Shown in pieces: positions 21,527 through 56,046 of a stretch of 64,000 nucleotides of DNA. The DNA is from Blastocystis hominis. Taxonomy: Eukaryota; Sar; Bigyra; Opalinata; Blastocystidae. Every line of letters begins with the position of its first letter. The stretch's first letter is position 1. Made by a program: the position numbers and the translations under genes. The notes under the pieces are model-generated. The model did no database searches, was not told the origin of the DNA, and was given only the letters and a program-made list of their open reading frames with translations. The DNA lies in contig NW_013171821.1 in NCBI RefSeq assembly GCF_000151665.1, positions 193,929 to 257,928 on the forward strand, given 5' to 3'.

Positions 21527-21534
21527 AACAAACA
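21527..21534 (-). terminator. TGTTTGTT element creating a stop for the small gene
   Basis: Reverse-strand element; the T at 21539, first base of a TTT codon, lies four bases upstream, so polyadenylation there would give UAA. Confidence 0.65.
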
Positions 21535-21538
21535 TCAA

Positions 21539-21831
21539 AAAGCATAGAGTTCTGAATAATAGAACGGTAGAACGATTCCATGTGCTTTTTTCGCGAGGAA
21601 CGTGGAACAAACTGGAGAGAAGAGATTGTATTGGTAGCTTCTAAAGTAGATACAGGTACGGAACGATTGTGATATAAGGCAGGATCTATTTGTTTCATCG
21701 ATCCGGATTCGCGAAGAGAGTTTAAAATAGCATTGACCTCACTCTCTGGAATTTCACGCTTCTGCGATTTTTTACTAACACTAAATAAATACAGACTGTT
21801 CGATACGTGGATGGAGATGGTTGACTCTCAT
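21539..21831 (-). CDS. Small hypothetical protein, stop made by polyadenylation
   Basis: Two exons: MRVNHLHPRIEQS, a 31-nt intron (GT...AG, about 21762-21792), then about 75 codons starting KREIPESEVNAILNSL and ending YRSIIQNSML. The genomic frame runs on past a TGTTTGTT element, but cleavage after the T at 21539 gives UAA. Charged and helical in look, with no motif I recognise. The element geometry and the standard-size intron argue that it is real. Confidence 0.5.
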
Positions 21832-24090: not shown

Positions 24091-25609
24091 ATGAAATACC
24101 TCATCCAATTTTCTCACTCGTACTTCCAATTTCGCATCCCTGAGCTAAACTCCTTGTTGGAGTTGAATGGACTTCAACCGAGTGACTGCTACAAAATGTT
24201 CGTAGCGAGGCGTTTATCTATAATACCACAGAGAAGACTATCACGAGGAATCACCGTTTTTAATCGTTTCTCTTCCCAGTGACGATGTTGCGAAGAAGGT
24301 GTCTATTTCCCAGATGCTTTGATTGAATAGATTGCATCCCGAGCGGTACTCATAAAAACGATTCAGGAATACTGGATGAATGCTCCCTCGTTTGAAAATT
24401 TGCTAGAGCGCATAGCATCCGTTTCCCAAGAGTTTTTGCCAAAGTGCTCCACAGTAGCAACCCATTCCAACGTTCATTTTCCAGAATCAAACCTCCTGGA
24501 AACTCGACGTTGATTCGTTCGGCAAAAGCATCTCCTCGACCGACCAAAAGAAATACATCCAGTCCGTCTTGGACAAAATCAACCTTCCAGGCCCCATCCA
24601 GATGAAGCATCCCGATCTGCTTCTCGTGCTCTCCTTCGACTGCGGCCACATCGGCGAAGGTCGTTCTCCCTCTCTCCGCTCACTCCAGAGATCAAGCAGG
24701 TCTACTTCGGCCGCTTCGTCGCCTCCGGACAACGCACGATTAACCGCGATTATGACCTGAAACGGCGCAAATACATCGGTCCGACCTCCACGTGCGCGGA
24801 ACTCTCCTTCCTCATGTCCAATCAGGTGCTCTCTCGCCCCGGCGCGGTGATGTGGGACTGTTTCGCGGGGACGGGCTCGCTGCTGGTGGCATCGACGGCG
24901 CATGGCAGTCATTGCATCGGCACGGACATCGATGTGCGCGTTTTGAAGGGCATCAAGAAGGGGAAGAAGGCGGAGTCGGTGCGAAGCAATTTTAGCCAGT
25001 ACGGATTGCGGTTCCCCGAGTTGGTGCGCGCCGATTTGTCCGCGTTGCCGCTGCGATTCCGCGGGTTGTATGCGGGTTTTTTGTGTGGTTATGAGCAGAA
25101 TCGACGGAATTCTGTGCGATCCGCCGTATGGAATCCGCGCGGGAGCGAGGAAAACATGCAGGTAGATGAGGCGCTGGAATGGGACGTAGCCGCGTGGGGG
25201 AGCATCCGCCGACGGAAATTCGCGAAGGACACATTCCCAGGACGGAAGTGTACGATCCGGATGATGTGATCGTGGATTTGCTGAATGTGGCTGCGAAAAC
25301 GCTCGTGCTGGGAGGAAGACTGGCTTATTTGCTGCCGACTTTTGGAGAGTAGGGAGATGGGGAGGGATGTGAGTGGAAGGCATGGAGAGAAGGAGGTGCC
25401 CGAACACCCGTGTTTGGAGCTTGTTTCGAACTCGGAAGAGAAGCTGCAGACACATGTGAGTCGAAGACTGGTGACGATGAAGAAGACGGCGGAATATGAA
25501 GAGAACAAGGAGGAGGAATACAAGGAATTTTGCAGAAAGTCCATCAAGCGGAATAACATTTCCTACGCGAATCTGAAGGAGTTTGTGTACAGTAAAAAGA
25601 AGGAAGAGT
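24091..25609 (+). CDS. TRMT11: tRNA guanosine-N2-methyltransferase Trm11, stop made by polyadenylation
   Basis: Catalytic subunit that methylates G10 of tRNA with partner Trm112. N-terminal part MKYLIQFSHSYFQFRIPEL and SPFLIVSLPSDDVAKK fits the THUMP/NFLD-like region. Then YFGRFVASGQR, the SAM site WDCFAGTGSLLVAS (near 24855-24900), GTDID, the catalytic DPPYGIR (assembled across a 31-nt intron near 25070-25100), VLGGRLAYLLP and HPCLELVSNSEEKL..SRRLVTM at the end, all diagnostic of Trm11. About seven introns of 28-34 nt. The frame runs on past the natural C-terminus; the T at 25609 (first base of TGG) is four bases before TGTTTGTT, so the mRNA would end ...KKKEE-UAA. Confidence 0.92.
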
Positions 25610-25613
25610 GGTA

Positions 25614-25621
25614 TGTTTGTT
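25614..25621 (+). terminator. TGTTTGTT element creating the Trm11 stop
   Basis: T(25609)-GGTA-TGTTTGTT. The genomic frame would otherwise continue to TAG at 25630-25632. Confidence 0.8.
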
Positions 25622-25739
25622 TGAATGAATAGCAGAAATAAACGCTGGAAGGGCGAAAATGTGAATTGGGACTTTGTCTGCCCAAATCCTTGACCCAATT
25701 CCAGATTGGCAGCTCTTACCAGATTTGCCAAATTGATCA

Positions 25740-31177: not shown

Positions 31178-31815
31178 ATGATGCGCATAACGGTGTTTCT
31201 GGCGCAAAATATTACTATCAGGAAGTATGGAAACACCCAAATAGGGTTATTCGAAAGTACTTCTGTCTTGATTTCCGTTTTCGATAGATTATTGACCTAT
31301 ACCAATATATCCATATCCATAGTATTATGCATCTTATTTATATGTAGTTGTTCTGAGTTATTCTGAGCTTTAGATGTACTCCTCAAACTGCAACTCTCCG
31401 CCTTTACGACTTCCGTCGTACGGTTTATCCCATTTCCGTATTGTGTATGGTGGAGGTTCCAAGTCTAGAAGCAAAGAGATTGAACTTTACAAACTCTTGA
31501 ATTATGCAAGCATCGATAGGTGTTGCTTTCTAGTTTTCTTTTGTATTGTGGCCAGCACAGTAGTTTGCGTATTTTTGAGTCTCCGGAAATATTTGGTGCC
31601 TGCCACGGCTCTGTTTTGCGCGACCCTTTACCTCTCTTCCTATTACTTGGTCTCCGTTTCTGTAATATTGTGTGAAGTCGCTGAGTATTAGAGTTTTGGC
31701 TTGAATTTCCACGAGTCGTCCACCTATTCGGAAATGAAGCAACTCAGTGTAGCAATGTTGGTATTCGCGGTTGTTCACTACATTGCGATGTGTTTTGTCC
31801 CTGCTCGATATCGTT
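31178..31815 (+). CDS. Four-helix membrane protein, stop made by polyadenylation
   Basis: Six introns (31193-31221, 31257-31287, 31347-31373, 31438-31468, 31520-31555, 31677-31715) join seven exons into one frame: MMRITEVWKHPNRVIRKLL, helix ISISIVLCILFIC, LQLSAFTTSVVRFIPF, KEIELYKLLNYASID, helices VVCVFLSL, YLVPATALFCATLYLSSYYL, and LSVAMLVFAVVHYIAMCF. The frame then meets T(31815)-CATG-TGTTTGTT, giving ...ARYR-UAA. All intron sizes are typical and the hydrophobic pattern is continuous, so the model is good, but I recognise no family. Likely an ER or endomembrane protein. Confidence 0.65.
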
Positions 31816-31819
31816 CATG

Positions 31820-31827
31820 TGTTTGTT
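31820..31827 (+). terminator. TGTTTGTT element creating the membrane-protein stop
   Basis: T at 31815 is the first base of a TCA codon, with four bases between it and the element. Confidence 0.75.
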
Positions 31828-32545
31828 AGAATAAAACACAACCAGTTCACACTAAGTTTATTTATTAAACTTTAAAATGAAGGGTGTATATGCTATGAAT
31901 TGATCTCCTTTTGAGTGTTTCTGGAATGAGAGTTATAATGTTCCCAAGTACGATTCTAAAACGTTTTCGATTATTATTGTCGATTATAAAACGTGCATAG
32001 TACTTCCTAATTCTCTTCTTGTCAAACTTGTCATTCCTAAAAGCAAAAGGTATTATTTGCCTCGAAATCATATTTCTACACAATTTACGAATTTTAATCA
32101 GCTTTCAATTCAGCATAATTCCAAGATCCTTGGTCTTTCTCTCCTTTCAATTCTCTATAGGATCTACTCCATTCATTTTCAATAGAAAGACGATATCCAA
32201 TGTTTTCAAACGAATTTAATGTATCATTATGTGCTTGCCTTCTTTGCACCGTAAACACATCGTAGAATTATTGATTCATGGATTACAGTCCATTTGCATC
32301 ATGTTGATGCATATACACCCTTCCGTTTGTTCTTGTTCAAGAGTAGGAGGCATATTCGTGGATTCCGCATCCTCTACTCTTCTACAAGTCTCCGAACAGA
32401 GCAAACCTAACACTTATGACGGCTGCGTCAAATCCCTCGCTTACCAGCTGCCGAATTTGATTGGAGAACGAGAGTGACGATGTGTTTGCATCCTTCTTCA
32501 CATTCTTTGAATTATCGAATCATTTTTTTATTTTGCTAAAATCGG
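31828..32545. other. 718 bp without a supportable gene
   Basis: Mixed AT-rich sequence. On the minus strand (31865-32083) a basic stretch reading NDKFDKKRIRKYYARF is open but has no start exon that works; upstream frames contain in-frame TGA codons. Possibly a decayed or very fragmented gene. Confidence 0.35.
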
Positions 32546-35046: not shown

Positions 35047-37624
35047 TAATGGACGTCGAGGTAGAACTTCCTTCAGTGGGAAGGGTTGGCTTTTATAATG
35101 AAGGAAACAGTTGTTTTCTGAATGCAGCTTGTCAAGTATGCGTTTGCTTTTGAAACTTTACTAAAGTGTTTATTCCATATCCCGGAGCTAGCAGTTCTTA
35201 TTCTTACAGCAAAAAGCGGAGTTCTTGTATTGTTGTGGAGCCTCTTCGATTTTTAGGATAATTCTCTGTCTTCCGATGAGGAACTTATCCCTATTCTAGC
35301 AAAAATCATATCCGGGACATTCCAAACGCCAAACAAAGCTATCTATATATCTTCTATTTTTTCAGCACTTTCAGCACGGGTTCCTTATCTGTGTGATGGG
35401 ACCCAGCATGATTCCCATGAAGTTATCGTACTTCCGAATTGTGTGCTCGACTCTAGGCGTTTCTTTTGCAAGCCATCGAAGAGGAATTGCTCGGTGCCCG
35501 TGTTCCGGGCAGTCCAATCGACAACCTCTACGAAAACGCCTCACCACGGGAGTATCAGCTGTGGTGGGACCACTACAAGCGCTACAATCCGACCTCCATT
35601 ACCACACTTTTCTACGGCTACTCGATCACCTCCACACTCTGCTCGCATTGCCACGCCCACTTCTCTACGCTCTCCGCCTTCAACACGCTCCACATCCCCC
35701 TCCCCCTCACCCAAACGCGGTTAAACGTGAATCTTGTCCACCAGTTCCTGGACCTTCCTACCGGACACGTGAGTCTCCGAACCGAGCCAATCTCTGTCAA
35801 GGTGGGTCCCTCCGCCTCTCTACGCGACGTCCGCGCCGCCATCCTCGCTTCTCTCGCCTCGAACTCGAACACCAACACTCATAGTGATGAAAGCAAAGCC
35901 TGCTCTCTGGACATCGCGCTGCTCATCGGGACGTACGACCTCACCGCGCGGTCCATCGAGTCCTACAGCCTCGCCGCGCTCGACCAGCCCATCGACTCGC
36001 TCCAGAGCGACGGGCTGCGCAACTTCTTCCTCCTCGCCTACCCCGTACGTCGTCCGCGCGCGGAGTTCTCGGTAGATGCCCGCGCAGCCGGGGCCCGCCA
36101 ACCTCCTCACGCTCCACGTCGTCACCTACGCCGACCGCGTCAACTTCGACGTCGTGCCCTTCGTCTTCCGCTTCCCCGACCCCCAGCCCCACCGCATTCG
36201 CGCCCGCCTCGCCCTCTTTTCCCGCGGGATTCTGCAGGGAAACCACTTCCACGACCACGACCGCGGACCCAACGGATTCTACTGCGACGCGCCCGACGAC
36301 CACGTTTCTACGGTTTCTACGGTTTCTACGGTTTCTACGAGCAAAAGTGGAAGTGTCTCCAATGGACCCGATGGACCCGACGGACCTCTGGATTCCACGG
36401 TTTCTACGGTTTCCACGGATGGTTTGGCCAACCAAAGCGTTTCCGGCGGTTCCAAACCATCGAAACTGGGGAAACCGTGGAAACCCGGGAGCCCCCTCCA
36501 TTTCCCGTTCTTCTCGAAACCCCCCTCGGTTTCCCCAGTTTCCCCAGTTTCCCCGAATCCCCCGTTCCCCCATGAAGCCTTCGCGGGTCTTGACGATTCC
36601 CCGCGGTTCCCGCGGTCGGTGTATCTGGATTGGTCGATGGTGGGCGCGGGCGTTTCGCTGATCTCCTTCAACATGACGATCCGCCCCGCGGCTCCGCGGC
36701 GGGCGTTACGCGACGGTTTCTCGCTGGAGGAGGGTCTGCAGAGCGAAGCCACGGGGCAGAACGCGCGTCTGCTGGAGGCCTGCCGGGAGTGCGGCGAAAC
36801 CGCGGGGCTGTCGCAGTCGGTGCGGTTCGGCGCGTTGCCGCCGATTCTGGCGGTGCAGCTGGAGCGGTTCGACGTTTCCTTCGTGACGGCGCGCGTGGTG
36901 CGCGAGGGCAAACCGCGGAACGAGCCGCGGTACGTGCGTCGCAAGGTGGGCGACGCGGTAGCGTTCCCGACGCGCGGCCTGGATCTGCGGTCGTGGGCGG
37001 GGGACGAAGCAGCGGTCTACGACCTGGTGTGCGTGTGCAACCACAGCGGAACCGCGGACAGCGGACACTACTACGCGTACTGCTGCGACGAGATGGACGG
37101 AGAGCGGCGATGGTTCTCTTATAACGACGATCTCGTCGTGGAAATCGGGGAAACCGAGGTCGTAACGCCCGATGCGTATCTGCTGTTCTATCGGCGAACC
37201 GACTGCCAGCATGACGTGTATGCCGCCATGAAAGAGCTCGTCGCGCCGCTCCCTGCGCAGCCAGACCCCGTGTCGAACCGCGGGGAGCCGGAGATGGTGG
37301 AAATGGGGAAACCATTTTCGACGTATAGCGCTGCGCGGTCGGTGGGGGTGATTTCGTCGTTGATGTGCATCGAGGATATTCAAGGATATAAAAACATCGG
37401 AGGGAAGAACATGTCCAAGAAGAATCGGATGGTTTCGTGGAGACGAACCTCCCAGTCGATCGACCGGACGGACAGGCTGTCGCTGAAGACGGGGGAGGTG
37501 GTGATGAAGCCGGAATTGGAATCGGATGAGTGGAAGAAGTTTTGTGCGGATAAAAAGAAGCTAAAGAGTACGGTCTTGTATACGCTGGGAGGAATTGCGA
37601 TTCTGTGGATTTTGGTGATTCTTT
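35047..37624 (+). CDS. USP-type deubiquitinase with C-terminal membrane helix, stop made by polyadenylation
   Basis: Cysteine protease that removes ubiquitin. Cys box VGFYNEGNSCFLNAACQ (35080-35135), QHDSHEAFLLQAIEEEL after an intron near 35425-35459, then LFYGYSITSTLCSHC, FNTLHIPLPL, a long insert with low-complexity VSTVSTVS and PVSPVSP, the second half CRECGETAGLSQ, LPPILAVQLERFD, and the His box SGTADSGHYYAYC with WFSYNDDLV. Catalytic Cys and His are present. The C-terminus carries one hydrophobic helix (YTLGGIAILWILVIL) and then T(37624)-CAAT-TGTTTGTT, so the mRNA stop follows the helix directly. This predicts a tail-anchored USP facing the cytosol. Genomic frame continues to TGA 37663-37665. 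Confidence 0.9.
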
Positions 37625-37628
37625 CAAT

Positions 37629-37636
37629 TGTTTGTT
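37629..37636 (+). terminator. TGTTTGTT element creating the USP stop
   Basis: T at 37624 is the first base of a TCA codon in a frame that would otherwise run 13 more codons. Confidence 0.75.
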
Positions 37637-37755
37637 TTAGTTCTAAGCGTACAGTGGTTTGTTGATCATGAAGAATTGATTGGATTACTGTTTTTCTAAC
37701 TTTACGCTTTCTTGTCGCTCTTGCTCCATTTCATTGTCGTCTTTCGGGAATAGAC

Positions 37756-40135: not shown

Positions 40136-40143
40136 AAGAAACA
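40136..40143 (-). terminator. TGTTTCTT variant element creating the cullin stop
   Basis: T(40148)-GCAC-TGTTTCTT on the minus strand; the T starts a TGC codon right after the residues expected at a cullin C-terminus. Confidence 0.6.
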
Positions 40144-40147
40144 GTGC

Positions 40148-41993
40148 AAAACTGAAGCTCCAATAGCGCTGGATTGTCTTCTGCACGACTCAAATATTCG
40201 CCTTCTATCAAGTATTCGATCGCTTCTTTAAACGCCATTTCATTTACAATCGAAATATGCTTCTCCACATACTTCTGAATCGCTTTCTCGGAGACTCGTT
40301 TCTTCTTTTTCACGCATTGAATCGCCCACGATGCAATTCGATCCCGTTCATCCAGTAGACTATTATGCATTTCCTCCCTCTTCGTCTCTCCCAACGAAAT
40401 CCGGAACAAAAACGGCAACTCCACGTCTTCTTGTGGTGTTACAAACCGAATTCCATTCGCATCGGCTTCGCAACAAGTCAGCGACTCCACGATTCGTTTC
40501 GTTGTGTCCTCTTTAAACGGCGAGCGTCGCTTCAGTTCGCTCCACCCAATCCACTGGTTTGAATCAAACAGCATCAAAATCATTGCTTGAGCCGGGCAGC
40601 AGCGGATGATTCTCTTTCCATCCACCTCCAATTCCACCCGACCAAACTCTGATTGCATTTCATACACACGCGATTCTTCTCCATTATCCTTCGCTTCTCT
40701 TGTTTCCACGTTTGTTTCCACGTTTGTTTCCACGTTTGCTGGAATGATAAACTCTTCTTCGCCCACAAACGACGAAAACAATCGTCGATTCACACGACCG
40801 CGGCGAATCAGCAGCGTTTTAATCGCCGCGCACGTGCTCGCAGCCAACGGGGAACCGACCAAATGCAACTCCAGTTCCACGTTTAGATCGACGAAACTCC
40901 ATCGAATCAAGAAGAGTTTCATGTAAATTGCGTCATTGGAGAGAAGGCTGCGAAACGCCGCCGCGTAGTGAAGAACGGGAATCGACGCGTTTTCGCTGCA
41001 GAGAAGCGAATGCATCGTGAGCTGCGAAATCTCCTCGATTTTTGGAATTGCAACAATCGGACGAATGTCAAAATCGTCGAATTGCAGCGAATTCGATAGA
41101 AACTCCAATATTTTCTTCCCCGTTTCCACGATTTGAGGGTCGACCGAAATCTTGGTGATTTCTGGAATTTCGATGGGAGCGCACAAGTTCCAAAAGAATT
41201 CGGTGAGCGAAAGAACGAATGAATGAATGAAACTCTTGGAAAGGTTGGGCTTTAAATCGAGTAAAAGGGGAAACAAATTGGGGGATTCCCACGGGAATCC
41301 GTTCTTTTCAAGGTCTTCGATGAGGGGCTGCCAGTATAACGAAGTATAACGAGATCGCCAATCGATCATGGCTTGCTCGGTCAGAACGGAACTCCACCGA
41401 TTGAACGCCTGATCAATGGCTTGGAGGGAGGGATTCGATTCGAATTCGGAGAGGAAAGGATGGATGAGAAAAGAGTGCAAAATGTGAGTGCGATTGGTTG
41501 GGTCGATTGTTTGAAGCACACTGCGCAAGGCAGTAATTTCAGAGTCGTTTTGAGATTGACGGAGGGATTCCAAGATTGTATCTTGCTGAGGAACCAACAC
41601 TAATTCAAGGAAGAGAGAGTAGGCGATGGAATTGAACGTCTCTTGTGTTATAAAAGAAGGGATCTATAAGGGGTGAAACACGAATTCATAAAAATACAAC
41701 ACGAAAAAGCAGAGATGACAACAAACTCACAACGCGTGAATATCCTGGAAAATCGGATTGTGAATTGAGGCGAGTACAGAGCGTAGTCAAGCCTCCAAAC
41801 ACAGTCTCGAGAATCTTGTTAACTCTTCCATTTCGGATGCATTCGTCGCTACATCTACGACTAGAGAAAGTACAAGCAACATACAGTATAAAACTATAGT
41901 GCTCTTGAACTGATATGGGGTTTCCTTCAATCACGCTAGTAACAGTCCTCGATACACTCTCCAGCAGTTGTTTTTCTCGATTACTCGTTTTCA
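40148..41993 (-). CDS. Cullin-family ubiquitin ligase scaffold (divergent)
   Basis: Scaffold of a cullin-RING E3. Three exons (introns near 41686-41755, unusually about 67 nt, and 41861-41890). The cullin homology region ends ILMLFDSNQWIGWSELKRRS then FLFRISLGETKREEM. The C-terminal winged helix RIASWAIQCVKKKKRVSEKA and AFKEAIEYLIEGEYLSR is the neddylation-domain signature; the acceptor Lys lies within the KKKKR/VSEKAIQK stretch but is not certain. A linker carries three NVET repeats. With the UAA formed at 40148 the protein ends LLELQF, matching a normal cullin end. Which cullin class cannot be told; the N-terminal half is divergent. Confidence 0.82.
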
Positions 41994-41995
41994 TC

Positions 41996-42003
41996 AACAA
42001 ACA
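41996..42003 (-). terminator. TGTTTGTT element of the kinesin-like gene, next to the cullin start
   Basis: T(about 42008)-GGAG-TGTTTGTT. The last base of the element is about 2 bp from the cullin ATG. Confidence 0.75.
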
Positions 42004-42007
42004 CTCC

Positions 42008-43286
42008 AATTCTTAGTTTCATCTAACATTCTCCTCAACCTTCGAATCTCATCCTCATACGCATCCGCATCGTTTTCCATTAAAAACAGCTCGTTCTTCA
42101 GCTCCATAATCTGCTGCTGCATCTTGTTCTCCTTCCGTAAAATCGCTCGAAACAGCACGGAAACTTCGCTCATTTCCTTCGATTCCTCTGTCAAAATAAT
42201 GCTTGCGCTCGCTCGCGACTCCAGCAACGGCTGCATCAGCTTCGTGAGCGAGCAGCAAGCGAAATTCGGAGACGCTTTGCCTTGCGAGATGGTTTGCAAG
42301 AGCTCATGGAGCAGCTTCCACGATATATCGATTTTGTTGTCGTCATCCCGCATGGAAATCTTAAAGATGTTCATCGTCGGTTGATCTGCCGAGGAAAGAA
42401 AGACATGATGACCACCCACGGATGATGCGTTGCGAAGATATACGGAAAGCTGCTTTAATGAATCGATTTCGCCGGAGTACGACGTTGTGATGCCGTTCAC
42501 GTCGAAGAGCGATACAATGTCTCCCTTGATGCGTCGGATTCGGATTGTTTGCTCGATTAAATGTCGCCAAATGCGGATTCCGTCGTCGGGAGAGGAAGAA
42601 ACGATTATGATATTGCTAGCTTGGGATGTGCATGTAGAAAAGAAGCGATTTAAAAGTTTCCATTCAGATCGAAGAGGGATGCAAAAGTCAGCCAGTTTGC
42701 TATCTTCCGAATAGGAATAGATTCGGCTGTCATGAAACGATGCACAGACGGAACCAAACTGCTGTACGATCGCGGGGAGGGACGACGCACTTTCGTGGAG
42801 AATCGAAACGGAGTGTTGGATCTAATGTTTTGAACTCTGTCGTTGGAAATACGTGAGGAATTACCAGTTTATTTTCTTCTTTGACCTGATCCACCGCGCT
42901 TACCACCTCCTTTAACTGTGTTTTACACCGCGAGAGCTCTTCCTTGCACTTTAGAAGCAACACATGCTCCTTTGCCTCTCGCTCTTTCAATTGTTTGATT
43001 TCTTCTAAAAGACATTCTCGCTCTTTGTTCCACTCCTGCTTCTCGGCTTCGTACGGTTAAGTCTAGCCGTGTTCCACCTTTTCAAGGATATAAGAGATTC
43101 TTTTTCGCCTTTCAGCCTGTTTAGTTGCAAAGTAAAGTTTTTCCTACCGATTACAACTTGGACCGACGTCTATACACAAGAGAATCAACTACTAGGGGTA
43201 TTCGTGAGAGGACCTGATTTACGACGCCTGTGTGGTATTCAGCATCCTACGCGGTTGAAGTCCGGTTGTTCACCCCTTACGTTCAT
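42008..43286 (-). CDS. Coiled-coil protein with divergent kinesin-like C-terminal domain, stop made by polyadenylation
   Basis: Starts MNDAEYHTGVVNQVL (first intron 34 nt), then about 100 residues of coiled coil (KQEWNKERECLLEEIKQL, KEREAKEHVLLLKCKEEL). The C-terminal part follows the kinesin motor in outline: WKLLHELLQTISQGK, CCSLTKLMQPLLESRASASI and ILTEESKEMSEVSVLFRAI line up with kinesin helix 4 to the L12 region. The P-loop position reads IVSSSPDDGIRIWRHL, so the GQTGSGKT motif is missing. A final coiled coil leads to KN-UAA. Layout (coil then motor at the C-terminus) is kinesin-14-like; ATPase activity is doubtful. The kinesin link is by eye and moderate. Confidence 0.6.
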
Positions 43287-43310: not shown

Positions 43311-46300
43311 CTATACATTTTCGCGTTCATACCTGTGAAGCACCGTTCCCACATCGAACGGCAGCGACACATTTCCGGCCACACTCAGCAGCGTCTTCTC
43401 GTCCATCACATCCTTCCACAACTGTCGCTTGTCCGCATGACACGTAATGATCTTGATAAAGTTCTCGTAATCCGCCTTCACGAGCTCTCCGCGGAGTATC
43501 GTGCAGATGGCGAGGGCCACTCTATAAAACACGACCGTGCCGTCGATCAGGAAGAGATCCCAAATCGCGGTCGCGACTTCGATCGGCAAAACGCTCAAAA
43601 ACCCGCACTGCAGCCACTGAAAGAAGAAAATGTCCGTCTGCACGCCCAGCTGCTCCTTGTGCCGCGCCACCTCCGGACAGACCTTCTCCAAGCAGACATC
43701 GAAGAGGTGCGAGTACTTGCTGCGTGTCAAAAAAAAGCGCCGATTCTACGGGAGAAACTCCTCGTTCATCTGGAAATAGGCGAAGAAATGGCGGGAGACC
43801 AGGAGATTGGCGAGCGCGCAGAACAGCGCGAACTCGTCGGCGATGTACAGCGCGAGCAGCCCCGCGACGAAGCTCATTCCCTGCACGTACCCGAGATCGG
43901 GCCGGTAGATCGCGAAGATTTCGAGGCATTGCTGCAGCTTGCTGCGCAGCGCCGAGCCCACGCGGAACAGCTGCAGGGCGCTACAGTCCAGCGACTCCCC
44001 CGCGGGTACCCGAAGGTGCGCGACAGATCGACGCCGACGCCGCGGAGCGTCTGCTCGCGCCCGATGGTGACCGTGGAGTTCCCGCTCGGCTCGCGGTAGG
44101 CGTAGGCGATGGAGAGGCGATGGCGCTTCCAGTGCCGCTGGTACATGGAGTAGATCTCACGAGTCAAGTGCAGGGCGTTGCCGATTTGGTGGGACCACAG
44201 CTTCCCGCGCAGTTCGATGGGCAGGCCGCGCCGCCACTCCGCGGCCACCTGCGTGGTCAGGCCGTGCGTGAAATAATCGCGGGAGAGCTGCGAACGCCAG
44301 AGAACGAGGCGGGTTTGCTCCTCCAAGTCGAGCTGTCGGATCGTTTTGGTGTCTTTGAACCGCGGGAAATCCATCCATTTGGACGGGGCGGCTTCGGGGA
44401 GGGAAGTGGAGGCCTGCGAAGTGGCGGGCTCGCGAAGAAACACCAGCACGTCGTCCGCCGCGGCGATGGATCGAATGTGCGAGAGCGCGGGGTGTGGCAG
44501 AACCGCGGGACGCGGGACGCTTTCCACGGGGTCCGGCAGTCCGAAGCAATTTCCCGCGTTGCGGCCCCAGGCGATGCAGCGACCCAGCGTCGTCGCCAGC
44601 AGGCAATTGTGCGCCCCACACGCGATGGTTTCCACGGTTTCCCCGGTCTGGAGACAGGCGTTGAGATAGATCTGCGTGGGGAGATGCGAAATCAGAAGAT
44701 GATTGGCTGCGCCCTGCGGACTTGTAGAACCCAGCGGATCGCGGATCCCCAGCTCGCCGAAACTCCCGCAGCCCCAGGTGAACACGGAGCGATCCTTCGC
44801 GAGGAGCAGCGAGAAGCCGTCGCCGCAGCAGACCTGCTGGACTTGCAGAGAGGAGGGAAAGCCTGCGATCTGTCGCGGGGAGAGGAGCATTTCGCCGTCG
44901 TACGCGCCGCACTGGCCTTCGCGACTGCGTCCGCAGGCGAAGACGCCGCTTTGTTTGTGAACGAAGACGGAGAAGTGGGAGCCTGCGGCGATGTGTGTGC
45001 AGTTTTGAAAGCAAAGAACGGGCGTGTAGATGAACGAGAGCGAGCTCACGCCACAGGCGCCGCTTCGATTGTCGCCCCACGCATACACGGCGCCCGACTC
45101 GTCCAATGCGAGCGAGTGCGTCGACGACGTGGCGATCTGATCGAAAAAACCCGTCCAATCATACCATGACAATTCGTTTGTTCAACAAACTCGAAACCAA
45201 CATGGGCGTTTCGCAGCGATGCACGCTCTTCCCGACTCCCAGTTGCCCAAGCTGGTTGTCGCCCCACGCGTAGACCAATCCGCTGTCTAGCAGCACCAAA
45301 AAATGCCCGGAACCCATCGCGATCTGCTCGATTTGGCTTCGCTGCAGCGTTCGGCGAATGCACAGATACTGATTCAGCTGCGGATCGGCGAAGTTCTGCC
45401 CCGAGGCCTGCGTCGCGACGCGTTTGGAGACGTAGAGATCGCCCGTGCGAGTGAGATATCTGCGATGGACCCGAGAAAGCGATCAAAACCCGATCAGATC
45501 GGTGCTGCAGGCGAGCTTCGCGATGTCCACGTTGGCCAGCGAGGGGAGAGGCGCGAAGCTGGGACTCTGCAGGACTTCGACGGACGATTTGAGGTCTTGG
45601 TCGAACTGAAGCGAAGCGCCTTCGTCGATTTCATCGTTGTCGCTGCTGGAGCTCGATGATGGCGAGGTGAGCGGACTAAGCGGGGAGAAATCGGGGCTCT
45701 TCGCAGCTTCGAAACGATCACGAGCTAGCTGGAAAGCGAGTTTGGTGGAATCGTCGAGGGAGGAGCGAGAACAGAAGGCATCGAGAATGGACTGTGCTGA
45801 AAAAGGAAAGTGCATAGCGTACAGTGAAAGAGCCTGTGAGTTCGCCTAGAAACTCGGCGATTGCCTTGTCGGGAGAAGCGATGGCGTGGAGTTTCAATTC
45901 GAGATCGATAACCTGATTTAGAGCGGAGTTTTCATTGAGTGCGTCGTCCTGAATTTCGATGTCTTTGCGAGCCAAGTCCCAGGAACACTGAATTGCTGTT
46001 TTCCAGCCCTCGACCGAATCCTCGAAACGAGCTTTTAAAACGAAATCCACGTCCACCGATCGAACAGTGAAAATGCGGTTATCAGACGAACTGGAGTAAA
46101 TTCCGGTGCAATGACTCAGTTCCAGCATTCCGATCGGCGAATCTCTCTCACTCTTGTAGTGGAAGGAATCCTTGTAGTAGACAAGCACGGAAGCTCTGCG
46201 CATTATACAAACCGTCAACTCTCCACGTTAGCACGAAATATCGCTTTTTCCAGCGCTTCTTCTGGTTCAGAATAAGCAGCTCTCCGGAATCTATCGATTC

Positions 46301-46409: not shown

Positions 46410-46417
46410 AACAAACA
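46410..46417 (-). terminator. TGTTTGTT element creating the RRM-protein stop
   Basis: T(46422)-GGAG-TGTTTGTT; the same nine bases as at the kinesin-like gene. The next start codon is 26 bp further on. Confidence 0.75.
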
Positions 46418-46421
46418 CTCC

Positions 46422-47924
46422 ATTCTAAGGTTCTATGAAACGTAAATCCGACCGAATTTCCCTCCGGTCCCGCCGCCACTCTCTGCATGGGCGTCTCCAC
46501 CGGCGCCGTCACATGCGGCAACTCGTTCACTCCAAAATCAGGACACGACATCATCCGCGGTCTTCTCTGCACGATTTCCTCCGTCTCCAAACCCAGTCCC
46601 GACACCGACGGCGCTCTCGACGCCCTGCCGCTCCGCGTCTGTCGTCCTCCCGCGCCTCCCGTCGCTCCGACGCCCGCCGTCGCGGCGGAAGGCGGCGTGG
46701 TGGAGATGAAAATGCTCTTCTCGTCGCCCTCGCCCTGCGTGTAGTGGCACAAACTCAGCTTCTCCGCGTACGTGAACACGATCGACTTCTCCAGCCTGCA
46801 TCTCACTCCTCCCTCTCGTCACTACGCCGAGAGATCGTTCGGAAACACCAGCGACGGCACCGGGCCGCGCGGGTTCTGCCCCACAAAACGCTCTTTGAAC
46901 TGCGTCAGCTGCTTCCAGAGCTGCTCCGCGACCGTAGACAGGAAAACCGGCTTGAACCCGCTCTCGAACTCGCGCTTATCCTGCTTTTTCTTGTACTCCA
47001 CTTCCAGCTTGGCGCCTGCGAACTGCTCGTCTTTGAGATAGCCCCAGGCCTGGATGGAACCGCGGGAAAAAGCGTACGATGCCGGCGTCTTCGATGTTGC
47101 GGTATTGAATGAAGACGGTGCCGGAGAACTCGCGCGCCTTGGAGTGCGGTTTGGTGGAGATGAAGGTGAAGGAGAGCGGGGAAATGGCTTGCTTTTTCTG
47201 AGAGTGAGAACAAAAAGAAGAAAAAGAAAAAAATACGATCCAGTCGAGGAATTGCGCATCGGATACGGTCAGAGGTACATTCTTTAAAACGAGGGTGGTC
47301 TGGAAAGAGAGGGGGATGGAGAGTGAGATACGCTGGTAGGCATTGTGCCTTTATCTTGGCCAGGCTCGATACGAAGCTCATCATCTCCGAAGGTGTAGGT
47401 TCCTAACTGAAGACACTCGTTATAGCCGATTTCCGATGTAAAAGTTACAAATCTGATCATGATACAGAAGGAAAGTGAGAACCCAAAGAGACGACCCTTT
47501 TCATTATAGCGCGGTTGGAAATCAATGCTTTTGATATCGGAGAACATGGAATTAAGCAGTTCGACAAATTTGGGTTTATCAAAGTTGGGACTAAAGTTCG
47601 ATACACGGATTCTAAAGATCTTGGATATTATCCACACAAGGAGGAGCTACTGGGCGTCTAGCCTCCAACTGAATGGAAAGCGATTGGGACCGTCGCCTGT
47701 TTTCTTTTCCGTTGGCAAACGAGCTACTGCGGGACCTATCCATCGGGATCCTTATCAATTCACACTACCTGCTGTTGTAAGAGCTCCCAGTTTCCAAGCT
47801 AGCAAAGCGAGATCCTCCTGAGGAGACATTCCTTGGACAGTAGCTTGGAGCCCTTGGATTCTATGCAATCACGTGAAAAAAGATTAGTAACAAATCGATG
47901 TTCCTTAACTTCTTCTGCGCTCAT
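46422..47924 (-). CDS. Two-RRM RNA-binding protein, stop made by polyadenylation
   Basis: N-terminus MSAEEVKEHRF then a Ser/Arg-rich region (SRSSSFANGKENRRRSQS). RRM1: FRIRVSNFSPNFDKPKFVEL with RLFGFVTFTSEIGYNE as RNP1 (across a 30-nt intron). RRM2: TTLVLKNVPLTVSDAQFLDW with FSGTVFIQYRNIEDAG as RNP1 and KLEVEYKKK at the end, a form seen in fungal PIN4-type RRMs. A Gly/Arg/Ser-rich tail follows after a 30-nt intron and ends ...TLE-UAA made at 46422. Six introns of about 28-38 nt. Probably mRNA regulation; target unknown. Confidence 0.8.
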
Positions 47925-50862: not shown

Positions 50863-50870
50863 TACAAACA
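50863..50870 (-). terminator. TGTTTGTA variant element creating a stop
   Basis: T(50875)-CTTC-TGTTTGTA on the minus strand; T is the first base of a TCT codon. Confidence 0.55.
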
Positions 50871-50874
50871 GAAG

Positions 50875-51757
50875 AAGGAAGCAGAACTTCGAGAAAGGAC
50901 TCATTGATGGCTCTCTGACACTCACTTGACAGAATATCGGCCAACGGACGAAGAATCAGAATCTACAAAATTAGTAAAGCAACAAGAATTAAAAACTACC
51001 GTGATGTTCTGCAGAATAGTTGACAAAATGAGATTCTCGGTGTGGGAAAGAGAAGGGAGCAATTCCTTCAAGTTTTCTAAAATACGAATAAACATATCAC
51101 AGCACGTAGCAATCACTTTCACAGCATGTAAATCGAAATTCTACATCAAACGAACCAACAGACACAAACTGTAGTATTCCTGCGCAAAAATACAAACTTT
51201 ATATTTCCGAGATGTTTGTAAATGTGGGGAAGCGTTAAATCATAATTTAATGTAATGTTCAAGTTCGGGTTCCATTCCACGATCTCACTCTACATTTCGA
51301 CTAGACCTCAACTTCTTACCACTTGAAGCGACTTCACTGCTTCCGGAGAAGAGATATAATCCACCTCACACAGAAATTGCTGAAGGAAATTTAGGCGATA
51401 TACTTGAGATCCATTGATCGGATAATCCGACGCAGTATAGGCAATATCCACAAGCGATCTCAACCTTTGCTTAACGGTGTTGAAAATCTTTACCGTTTCT
51501 GGTTCGACTCGCTAGAAAACTCATTTTGAATACATTTTGACGATAGTTTTACGGTTTCCAGAGCAAGTACATCAGGGATACAGAAACATGCCTTCGTATA
51601 CTTAAAACGTTCAATTAAAGAGTCAATCTTTTTTTCCATCCAAGAACAACGGATACGCTGTAAGCAGTTTTCGAATAATGACACGCGATAAAGGTTCAGG
51701 CGTATGAATTCCAAGAGGCACAAAGATCCTTCGCGTCTACCCAAATCAAAGGGCTAA
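50875..51757 (-). CDS. Hypothetical alpha-helical protein, 5' end uncertain
   Basis: Exons join to GSLCLLEFIRLNLYRVSLFE, WMEKKIDSLIERFKYTK, RVEPETVKIFNTVKQRL, then YRLNFLQQFLCEVDYISSPE, NPNLNITLNYDLTLPHIYKH, IATCCDMFIRILENLKELLP and LRPLADILSSECQRAINESF, ending FLEVLLP with a poly(A)-made UAA at 50875. Introns 30-43 nt. It reads as all-helical, like a tethering-complex or HEAT protein, but I recognise no family. The first exon opens at a splice acceptor near 51757 with no ATG before the divergent gene, so translation may start at ATG 51639 or in an unseen exon. Confidence 0.5.
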
Positions 51758-54778: not shown

Positions 54779-54786
54779 AACAAACA
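54779..54786 (-). terminator. TGTTTGTT element of the bHLH gene
   Basis: T(54791)-GACT-TGTTTGTT where the T is the first base of the encoded TGA; cleavage there turns TGA into UAA. Confidence 0.7.
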
Positions 54787-54788
54787 AG

Positions 54789-56046
54789 TCAAACAAGCTT
54801 TTCCAACCCTGCACAATGTCCACCAATAGCATCACATTCCTCCATCCCAGACGCTCCAACCAGCTGCAACGGCGTGAAGGTAACAGCGATCTGGCAGTAG
54901 TACCCGTTCATATCCATCACATTTCCCATCGTAAGCAAGCACGGGAAGCGAATCTACCTCGCACGTCCCATCCATCCATACATTGCGCCGATCATTCGCC
55001 ACCGTGAGGTTAAACGATCGCACGGCGTGATGCGTGCTGTTCGCCAGCTGCCCCAACTCGCTCCACGCCTTCGACAAGTCGCTCACCACCACCAAATCCA
55101 GCAGCGTCAGCGCGTTTACCTCTTCGATCGTCGCGAATTGGAACAAACTACGGTCAACTCTCTCTCCCTCTGCGCCTACTGCATAAACGCCGAGTTCCCT
55201 TTCAACAGCTGCGCGCTCGGAAGATTCGCCACCACCGTCGCTACGTTGCTCTTCATCCACACATCTTTATAGTTCATCCCCGCGGAGATCGACAGCGTTT
55301 CGCTCCCCTCCGCCGTTTCGCTCGCTTTGGTCGACTCCTCCGGTTTGGGAGATTCTCTAGTTTCCCCTGTTTCCCCGGTTTGTTGGAGGGAGGAAGCGTT
55401 TTTGGCTCGTTCCTCGGCTTCGGCTTCTAAAATGCGTCGCATCAAACTGTGGCCTTTGTAGCGGTCTGGATCGCGCGAGCGCGTTGAAGAGGCAGCAGAG
55501 CGACGTTTGGACGTTGTGTCCGAGGAAGAGGACGAAGGGAGGGGTGATGGAGCAGAAGCAGAAGCAGAAGCAGAAGCAGGAGAGTGATTTATAGGAGGAT
55601 TGGAAGGAGGAATTTGAAATGGACTCGGACCATATTGAATAGGTTCAGACTCCTCTGAATCGGGAATTACTGCTTGATTGATAATTTTATCGATATCTTT
55701 ATTGAATGAATAACACATTTGCATACAGCCAAGGGAAGCAGTCAAACGATCGCGCTCACGGATGAGATCCTTCATATAATTTGCTACAGCCTCGATCGTG
55801 GATATTTTGTCCGATTTGAAATTCACGCCCGCTTCCTACTTTGAAGCAATGTGTTTCACTTGTACGGATAATATGCTTCGAAGCTCATCAATGTGACTAT
55901 TTATCGTTTTTATTCTTCTTTTCTCTGCCTCATTATGATATGCTCGTTTTCTTTGTTGGGACGCCGAATAGGACAAACTATTTCACCATAAACTGGAAAA
56001 ATAAAGAGTACGATGGTGGCGGCATTACAGGAAGAGGAGAACTCAT
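54789..56046 (-). CDS. Basic helix-loop-helix transcription factor
   Basis: MSSPLPVMPPPS, 34-nt intron, then a complete bHLH: basic region RKRAYHNEAEKRRIKTIN, helix 1 SHIDELRSIL, 30-nt intron in the loop, helix 2 VNFKSDKISTIEAVANYMKD, followed by a leucine-bearing LIRERDRLTASL. The His-Glu-Arg positions of the basic region predict E-box binding. A long Ser/Pro/Ala-rich linker (SASASASAP) and a conserved-looking C-terminal region (FQFATIEEVNALTLLDLVVV, HAVRSFNLTVANDRRN) follow. I chose the splice that ends at TGA 54789-54791 because TGTTTGTT follows at once; an alternative frame stops at 54832. The C-terminus could be a divergent PAS- or ACT-like sensor, unproven. Confidence 0.78.

What the first reader, a model, noticed from the sequence alone, without database searches (positions are those of the whole stretch)
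25601..25632. Stop codons missing from the genome and predicted to be made by polyadenylation
In Trm11 the frame passes the family C-terminus, but T(25609)-GGTA-TGTTTGTT lies there, with T at codon position 1. The same arrangement, T in codon position 1 and four bases before the element, occurs at 21539, 31815, 37624, about 42008 and 46422, and with one-base element variants at 40148 (TGTTTCTT) and 50875 (TGTTTGTA). Chance would put T in position 1 in only one third of cases. The phenomenon is established for Blastocystis; the gene list here is from sequence reading.
Basis: partly seen in the sequence, partly recalled or inferred. Interest (0 to 1): 0.85.

Follow-up and report, generated by a model that had tools for sequence, protein, structure and literature searches.

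The report
Stop codons finished by poly(A) tails
In this gut protist some genes end in a bare T that becomes a stop codon only when the cell adds the poly(A) tail; this was already described in this same genome, and the gene list given here is mostly sound.

Summary
In detail: all eight named T's lie five bases before TGTTTGTT or a one-base variant, as first base of a codon in an open frame. The window is Blastocystis subtype 7, the genome in which Klimes et al. 2014 reported stop codons made by polyadenylation from ESTs. Five sites (25609 Trm11, 37624 ubiquitin protease, 40148 cullin-like, 42008, 46422) have homology or coding support; 21539, 31815 and 50875 stay unproven. Strongest tests: two ubiquitin-protease relatives end exactly where the made stop would fall; the cullin-like protein then ends level with CUL4B; in 264 kb, coding frames reaching the element unstopped end in a completable T or TA in 15 of 16 cases, against 6 of 66 at permuted elements. 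No transcripts could be examined. 'Passes the family C-terminus' is wrong for Trm11: relatives run longer. The phenomenon is already known. One side result I did not find in print: 44 back-to-back elements (TGTTTGTT-N0-2-AACAAACA), 2.1 expected, many with poly(A)-made stops beside them.

The parts
24479..25608 (+). Trm11 (tRNA guanine-10 N2-methyltransferase), C-terminal part of the gene; introns 24660-24688, 25065-25095, 25162-25189, 25349-25379
   Evidence: exons joined; homologues
25609..25621 (+). predicted last base of the Trm11 mRNA (T25609, first base of TGG), 4-base spacer GGTA, element TGTTTGTT 25614-25621; encoded TAG at 25630-25632
   Evidence: relatives
36076..37623 (+). last large exon of a ubiquitin carboxyl-terminal hydrolase (USP) gene
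   Evidence: PF00443; P0130-P0133
37624..37636 (+). T37624, spacer CAAT, element TGTTTGTT 37629-37636
   Evidence: relatives P0132 and P0133 end at the residue before it
40149..41663 (-). cullin-like gene, open frame of 505 codons before the site
   Evidence: PF10557 Cullin_Nedd8 E 3.8e-5, below curated cut-off, to profile end; CUL4 chains
40136..40148 (-). T40148, spacer GCAC, variant element TGTTTCTT
   Evidence: C-terminus level with CUL4B
42009..42821 (-). open frame of 271 codons; a RabGAP-TBC match lies upstream at about 43480-43700, perhaps the same gene
41996..42008 (-). T42008, spacer GGAG, element TGTTTGTT
   Evidence: coding score positive
46423..46818 (-). open frame of 132 codons, no family found
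46410..46422 (-). T46422, spacer GGAG, element TGTTTGTT
   Evidence: coding score positive
21527..21539 (-). candidate: T21539, spacer TTGA, element TGTTTGTT
   Evidence: frame not proven
31815..31827 (+). candidate: T31815, spacer CATG, element TGTTTGTT
   Evidence: frame not proven
50863..50875 (-). candidate: T50875, spacer TCTT, variant element TGTTTGTA
   Evidence: frame not proven
   Evidence: 54 codons open, coding score negative
54779..54791 (-). T54791 also begins an encoded TGA; polyadenylation there would only turn UGA into UAA

Best explanation
These are nuclear genes of Blastocystis subtype 7 whose pre-mRNA is cut directly after a U that is the first base of a codon. The place of the cut is set by a GU-rich downstream element, UGUUUGUU, four bases further on. 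Poly(A) addition turns the U into UAA, and translation ends there. Shown here: the sequence arrangement, its excess over chance, its dependence on the reading frame, and agreement with relatives' C-termini at 37624, 40148 and (one relative) 25609. Shown in the literature for this genome: poly(A) starts there in ESTs of hundreds of genes. Inferred for the genes in this window: cleavage and adenylation at the named T's.
For: Element 23 times against 2.29 expected. Genome-wide, after removal of (TGTT)n array members, T at -5 in 3,524 of 6,458 elements. Frame dependence. USP: P0132 (77% identical) and P0133 (57%) end exactly at the residue before T37624. Trm11: P0123 (82%) ends exactly at the residue before T25609, and P0122 and P0129 continue only with element-coded CVVC and CDVC. 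Cullin-like: query residue 499 aligns with 720 of 726 in CUL4B chain 4a0l_E and the made stop follows residue 505, six residues later in both; CUL3 chain 8h34_M aligns 494 with 757 of 768, eleven later in both. Literature: PMC4159000, PMC5608401 (passages), PMC4360255 (passages and section 8). In ST7, changing the legumain element together with two upstream T's cut reporter expression 324-fold (PMC6395660, passages).
Against: No transcript or peptide was examined. P0131 (85%) shares not only element-coded SIVC but also KRTV beyond the site with the window, as if the read-through were kept; close kinship explains it equally well. Trm11 relatives P0007 and P0020 have C-termini 21 and 34 residues longer by my count. 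The cullin match is weak (Pfam below cut-off, phmmer E 0.0078) and that gene's coding score is negative, -8.2; TGTTTCTT as a class shows T at -5 in only 9 of 28. Three of the eight sites have no support for the frame. Whether the C-termini of P0123, P0132 and P0133 are true encoded stops was not checked in DNA.
Confidence: 0.92

Rival explanations
1. Ordinary stop codons: the genes read on to the next encoded stop, 4 to 28 codons further, and the element lies inside the coding region by chance or acts elsewhere.
For: An encoded stop does follow in each frame, after 4 to 28 codons at the eight sites. P0131 shares KRTV with the window beyond the site.
Against: Relatives P0132, P0133 and P0123 end exactly before the T. 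15 of 16 unstopped coding frames end in a completable T or TA at the element, against 6 of 66 at permuted elements. Poly(A) after the U is documented in this genome.
Confidence: 0.04
2. A small intron spans the site and the true terminal exon lies beyond, as the database model assumes for the USP gene and as GT...AG pairs allow for Trm11.
For: The NCBI model P0130 (tail AILGLLIMKN) is reproduced exactly by an intron 37605-37654. For Trm11 an intron 25608-25635 of 28 nt would give a 19-residue tail ENKRWKGENVNWDFVCPNP after the last shared KKKE; other Trm11 introns here are 28-31 nt, and relatives have longer tails.
Against: P0131 and P0132 keep ILWILV/WILVVL-type sequence colinear through the supposed donor, and P0133 LLCILVLT, against the USP intron. 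False introns of this kind were described by Klimes et al.. Published ST7 introns centre on 31 nt (median; PMC3129679, passages), so 22-25 nt is short and 50 nt long, though 28 nt is not excluded. P0123 ends exactly at the Trm11 site.
Confidence: 0.04
3. The T at -5 is only a cleavage preference (cutting after U) with no bearing on the reading frame; some T's fall in phase 1 by chance.
For: U is the commonest base at the poly(A) attachment position in B. hominis overall (PMC4360255 section 8). Sites classed as having an encoded stop also carry T at -5 in 8 of 20 (my count).
Against: T sites are phase-biased (22/12/5), non-T sites are not (8/11/8); 14 of 15 created-class sites are T|AA. A mild preference may exist as well; the two do not exclude each other.
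Confidence: 0.03

Closest known systems
Polyadenylation-made termination codons in nuclear genes of Blastocystis (Klimes et al. 2014, PMC4159000; PMC5608401)
   Same: Same genome as far as can be told, same element, same four-base spacing, same U-to-UAA completion
   Different: Nothing in kind. Whether these particular genes are among the published 372 was not checked, since the supplement could not be read
Incomplete stop codons completed by polyadenylation in animal mitochondria (as cited in PMC4159000)
   Same: The tail supplies one or two A's of UAA
   Different: Mitochondrial genes and a different processing apparatus (the latter recalled); here nuclear genes with a fixed downstream element
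PAY*: Tyr-to-stop conversion by alternative polyadenylation in mammals (as cited in PMC4159000)
   Same: A nuclear mRNA is cut inside a codon and the tail makes UAA
   Different: PAY* gives an alternative, shortened protein; here it is the only end proposed for the gene

Membership tests
Blastocystis genes with polyadenylation-made stops | Nuclear gene of Blastocystis | tested here: met
Subtype 7 inferred from this and genome size; no rRNA barcode obtained
Blastocystis genes with polyadenylation-made stops | TGTTTGTT or close variant exactly four bases after the last mRNA base | tested here: met
   8 of 8 sites, two with one substitution
Blastocystis genes with polyadenylation-made stops | The gene's frame reaches the site without a stop and ends in T, TA or TG | tested here: met
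   For 25609, 37624, 40148 by homology, 42008 and 46422 by coding score
Blastocystis genes with polyadenylation-made stops | Same feature at 21539, 31815, 50875 | tested here: inconclusive
   Frame open, but no homology and negative coding score
Blastocystis genes with polyadenylation-made stops | Protein C-terminus agrees with relatives | tested here: met
   USP and cullin-like; for Trm11 one relative agrees and two are longer; not tested for the other five
Blastocystis genes with polyadenylation-made stops | Poly(A) begins directly after the T in transcripts, without other 3' ends | not testable with these tools
   No ESTs or reads held; reported for 372 of 2,419 genes of this genome in PMC4159000

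The most novel reading that the evidence does not exclude
Back-to-back poly(A) elements (TGTTTGTT, 0-2 bases, AACAAACA) form a distinct two-way 3'-end module shared by convergent genes. One near-palindrome of 16-18 bp places both cleavages, and on one or both sides it also makes the stop codon, so that two coding ends can lie about 24-26 bases apart.
Probability: 0.2. Interest if true: 0.5.

Novelty: already known. Interest (0 to 1): 0.3.

Why it matters
Gene models from Blastocystis, in databases and metagenomes, carry wrong C-termini wherever this happens. The window shows one database model that is reproduced by a 50-nt false intron, and relatives' C-termini offer a way to check cases without RNA. 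Genome-wide, the excess of T at -5 suggests made stops at roughly a quarter to a third of exact elements (an estimate), nearer the 26% reported for subtype 1 than the 15% from subtype 7 ESTs. The back-to-back elements, if a real module, would make shared two-way 3'-end formation testable in a protist that can be transfected.

Tried and rejected
Pfam scans used wrong frames for minus-strand genes (I changed the low coordinate, which does not move the frame); redone. T at -5 was first counted with (TGTT)n arrays, which inflate it; arrays were subtracted. The coding model, trained on long ORFs, converged on a GC3-rich class (0.77), so many genes stay unclassified: 63 of 99 sites, and the cullin-like gene scores negative. 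C13:161191, first seen as an exception, is better explained by an encoded stop 24 bases upstream; C13:11864 remains a frame that reads through. An rRNA search for a subtype barcode did not complete. P0127 looks chimeric, and P0121 (98% identical) is too close to inform. My first script for the Trm11 intron rival had wrong boundaries; corrected.

Full report
WHAT IS THERE. At 25609, 21539, 31815, 37624, 42008 and 46422 a T is followed by four bases and TGTTTGTT; at 40148 and 50875 by TGTTTCTT and TGTTTGTA. In each case the frame with T as first codon base is open upstream, for 29 to 516 codons. The 8-mer occurs 23 times in the window, 2.29 being expected from shuffles. The organism is Blastocystis, almost certainly subtype 7: the window lies in an 18,707,701-base assembly on a contig of 485,911 bases, the length listed for the contig of the 99% identical 'Blastocystis hominis' protein P0130; the published ST7 genome has 18.8 Mb (PMC3129679, passages).

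MORE THAN CHANCE. T stands at -5 in 15 of 23 and 53 of 91 sites. Genome-wide there are 7,304 elements, 4,298 of them with T at -5. Removing array members, 846 and 774, leaves 3,524 of 6,458 (54.6%). Reading frame matters: T sites (n=54) have frames open at least 50 codons in phases 1/2/3 = 22/12/5, non-T sites (n=45) 8/11/8. With a codon-usage model trained on long ORFs, 36 of 99 sites could be classified: 14 end T|AA, 1 TA|A, 20 have an encoded stop within 100 bases upstream, 1 reads through. At permutations of the 8-mer, 112 of 706 were classified: 6 completable, 46 encoded, 60 reading through. Completable against reading through is 15:1 versus 6:60, Fisher p 8e-11. The model favours GC3-rich genes, I chose the score threshold, and related genes in duplicated blocks were not removed from these counts.

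GENE BY GENE. Trm11 (25609): exons joined over introns of 28, 29, 31 and 31 nt give a clear Trm11. The last exon has close relatives. P0123 (82%) ends with SKKKAI exactly where the window has SKKKEE before T25609; P0122 and P0129 run on as EECVVC and EECDVC, residues that an element at the same place would encode. An intron 25608-25635 of 28 nt is possible on paper. USP (37624): P0132 (77%) and P0133 (57%) end exactly at the residue before T37624; P0131 (85%) runs through with SIVC and shares KRTV beyond. The NCBI model P0130 ends AILGLLIMKN, which I reproduce by assuming an intron 37605-37654 that removes the element; the relatives are colinear there and contradict it. Cullin-like gene (40148): the ORF has a neddylation-domain match (PF10557, E 3.8e-5, below the curated cut-off, reaching the profile end). 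Residue 499 aligns with residue 720 of the 726-residue CUL4B chain, and the made stop falls after residue 505, so both end six residues later (weak match, E 0.0078); reading through would add 28 residues. Its coding score is negative. At 42008 and 46422 the frames are long and score as coding. 21539, 31815, 50875 and the unlisted 637 have negative coding scores and no family hit that fixes the frame. At 54791 and 56161 the T also begins an encoded TGA.

MECHANISM. The simplest account is that of Klimes et al. 2014 (PMC4159000, parts 1 and 2 of 3 read): a conserved UGUUUGUU element directs cleavage four bases upstream, and the tail completes the stop. They report 372 of 2,419 EST-mapped genes. 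PMC5608401 (passages) gives 1,693 genes (26%) in subtype 1. Reporter work in subtype 7 shows a 324-fold loss of expression when the legumain element is changed together with two upstream T's (PMC6395660, passages). PMC4360255 (passages and section 8) reports U at the attachment position and no predominance of A after it. All this fits. Cleavage at the window's own sites is inferred.

HOW MANY. If sites without a made stop carry T at -5 in 30-40% of cases (an assumption; positions -9 to -6 have T in 35-41 of 99), the genome-wide 54.6% implies that 24-35% of exact elements make a stop, some 1,570-2,270 sites. This is an estimate from sequence and covers only exact elements.

SIDE RESULT. TGTTTGTT followed after 0-2 bases by AACAAACA occurs at 44 places (8, 17 and 19 for spacing 0, 1, 2), 2.1 being expected from element density. 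Spacing 0-10 gives 62 places, spacing 11-40 only 34 including repeated-array counts, about 21 being expected at 0.71 per spacing, and the opposite order within 0-10 gives 3. I read the flanks of all 44 (39 in C13). After dropping three copies, 82 sides: 25 T|AA, 1 TG|A, 17 encoded stop, 39 unclassified, none classed as reading through; both sides T|AA in 4 of 41 pairs. With up to two mismatches in the partner, 20 of 94 non-array elements in 264 kb have one within 0-3 bases, about 3 being expected; 10 of the 20 are the two sides of five exact pairs. This may be the limit of gene packing or a two-way 3'-end module. I did not find it in the parts read of PMC4159000, in the passages of PMC5608401 ('convergent' and 'palindrom' do not occur there), or in the listings of two searches.

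VERDICT. The kind is already known, as far as can be told in this very genome. Five of eight sites are well supported and three remain candidates.

Noticed in passing
Genome-wide, 44 places listed; in the fetched C13 stretch at C13:1015987, 1054072, 1077250, 1085898, 1161196: Back-to-back poly(A) elements TGTTTGTT-N0-2-AACAAACA, about 20 times more than element density predicts, often with made stops on one or both sides.
   Followed up: partly
window 37605-37654: The NCBI USP model P0130 is reproduced exactly by a 50-nt intron that removes the poly(A) element, a false intron of the kind Klimes et al. describe.
   Followed up: yes
25 T|AA sides of the back-to-back elements; genome-wide TGNNNTGTTTGTT: The four-base spacer is not random: G directly after the T in 18 of 25 and A in none of 25; genome-wide G follows the T in 1,573 of 3,524 non-array T sites.
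   Followed up: partly
window 25609, 31815, 37624, 42008, 46422, 50875: In-frame read-through of T-NNNN-TGTTTGTT always gives x-x-Val-Cys, so wrongly extended database proteins should carry VC as third and fourth residue past the true end.
   Followed up: no
Genome-wide, e.g. G000:C1:492208-492239 and C1:751396-751435: Arrays of TGTT repeats: 846 overlapping occurrences of TGTTTGTTTGTT. Whether they act as poly(A) elements is unknown.
   Followed up: no
window 31815 with 31831-31838: The candidate at 31815 has a degenerate reverse partner (two mismatches, spacing 3) directly after its element.
   Followed up: no
protein P0127: A metagenome ORF joins an N-terminus flagged PF04616 to the Trm11 C-terminus; probably a chimeric assembly.
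   Followed up: no
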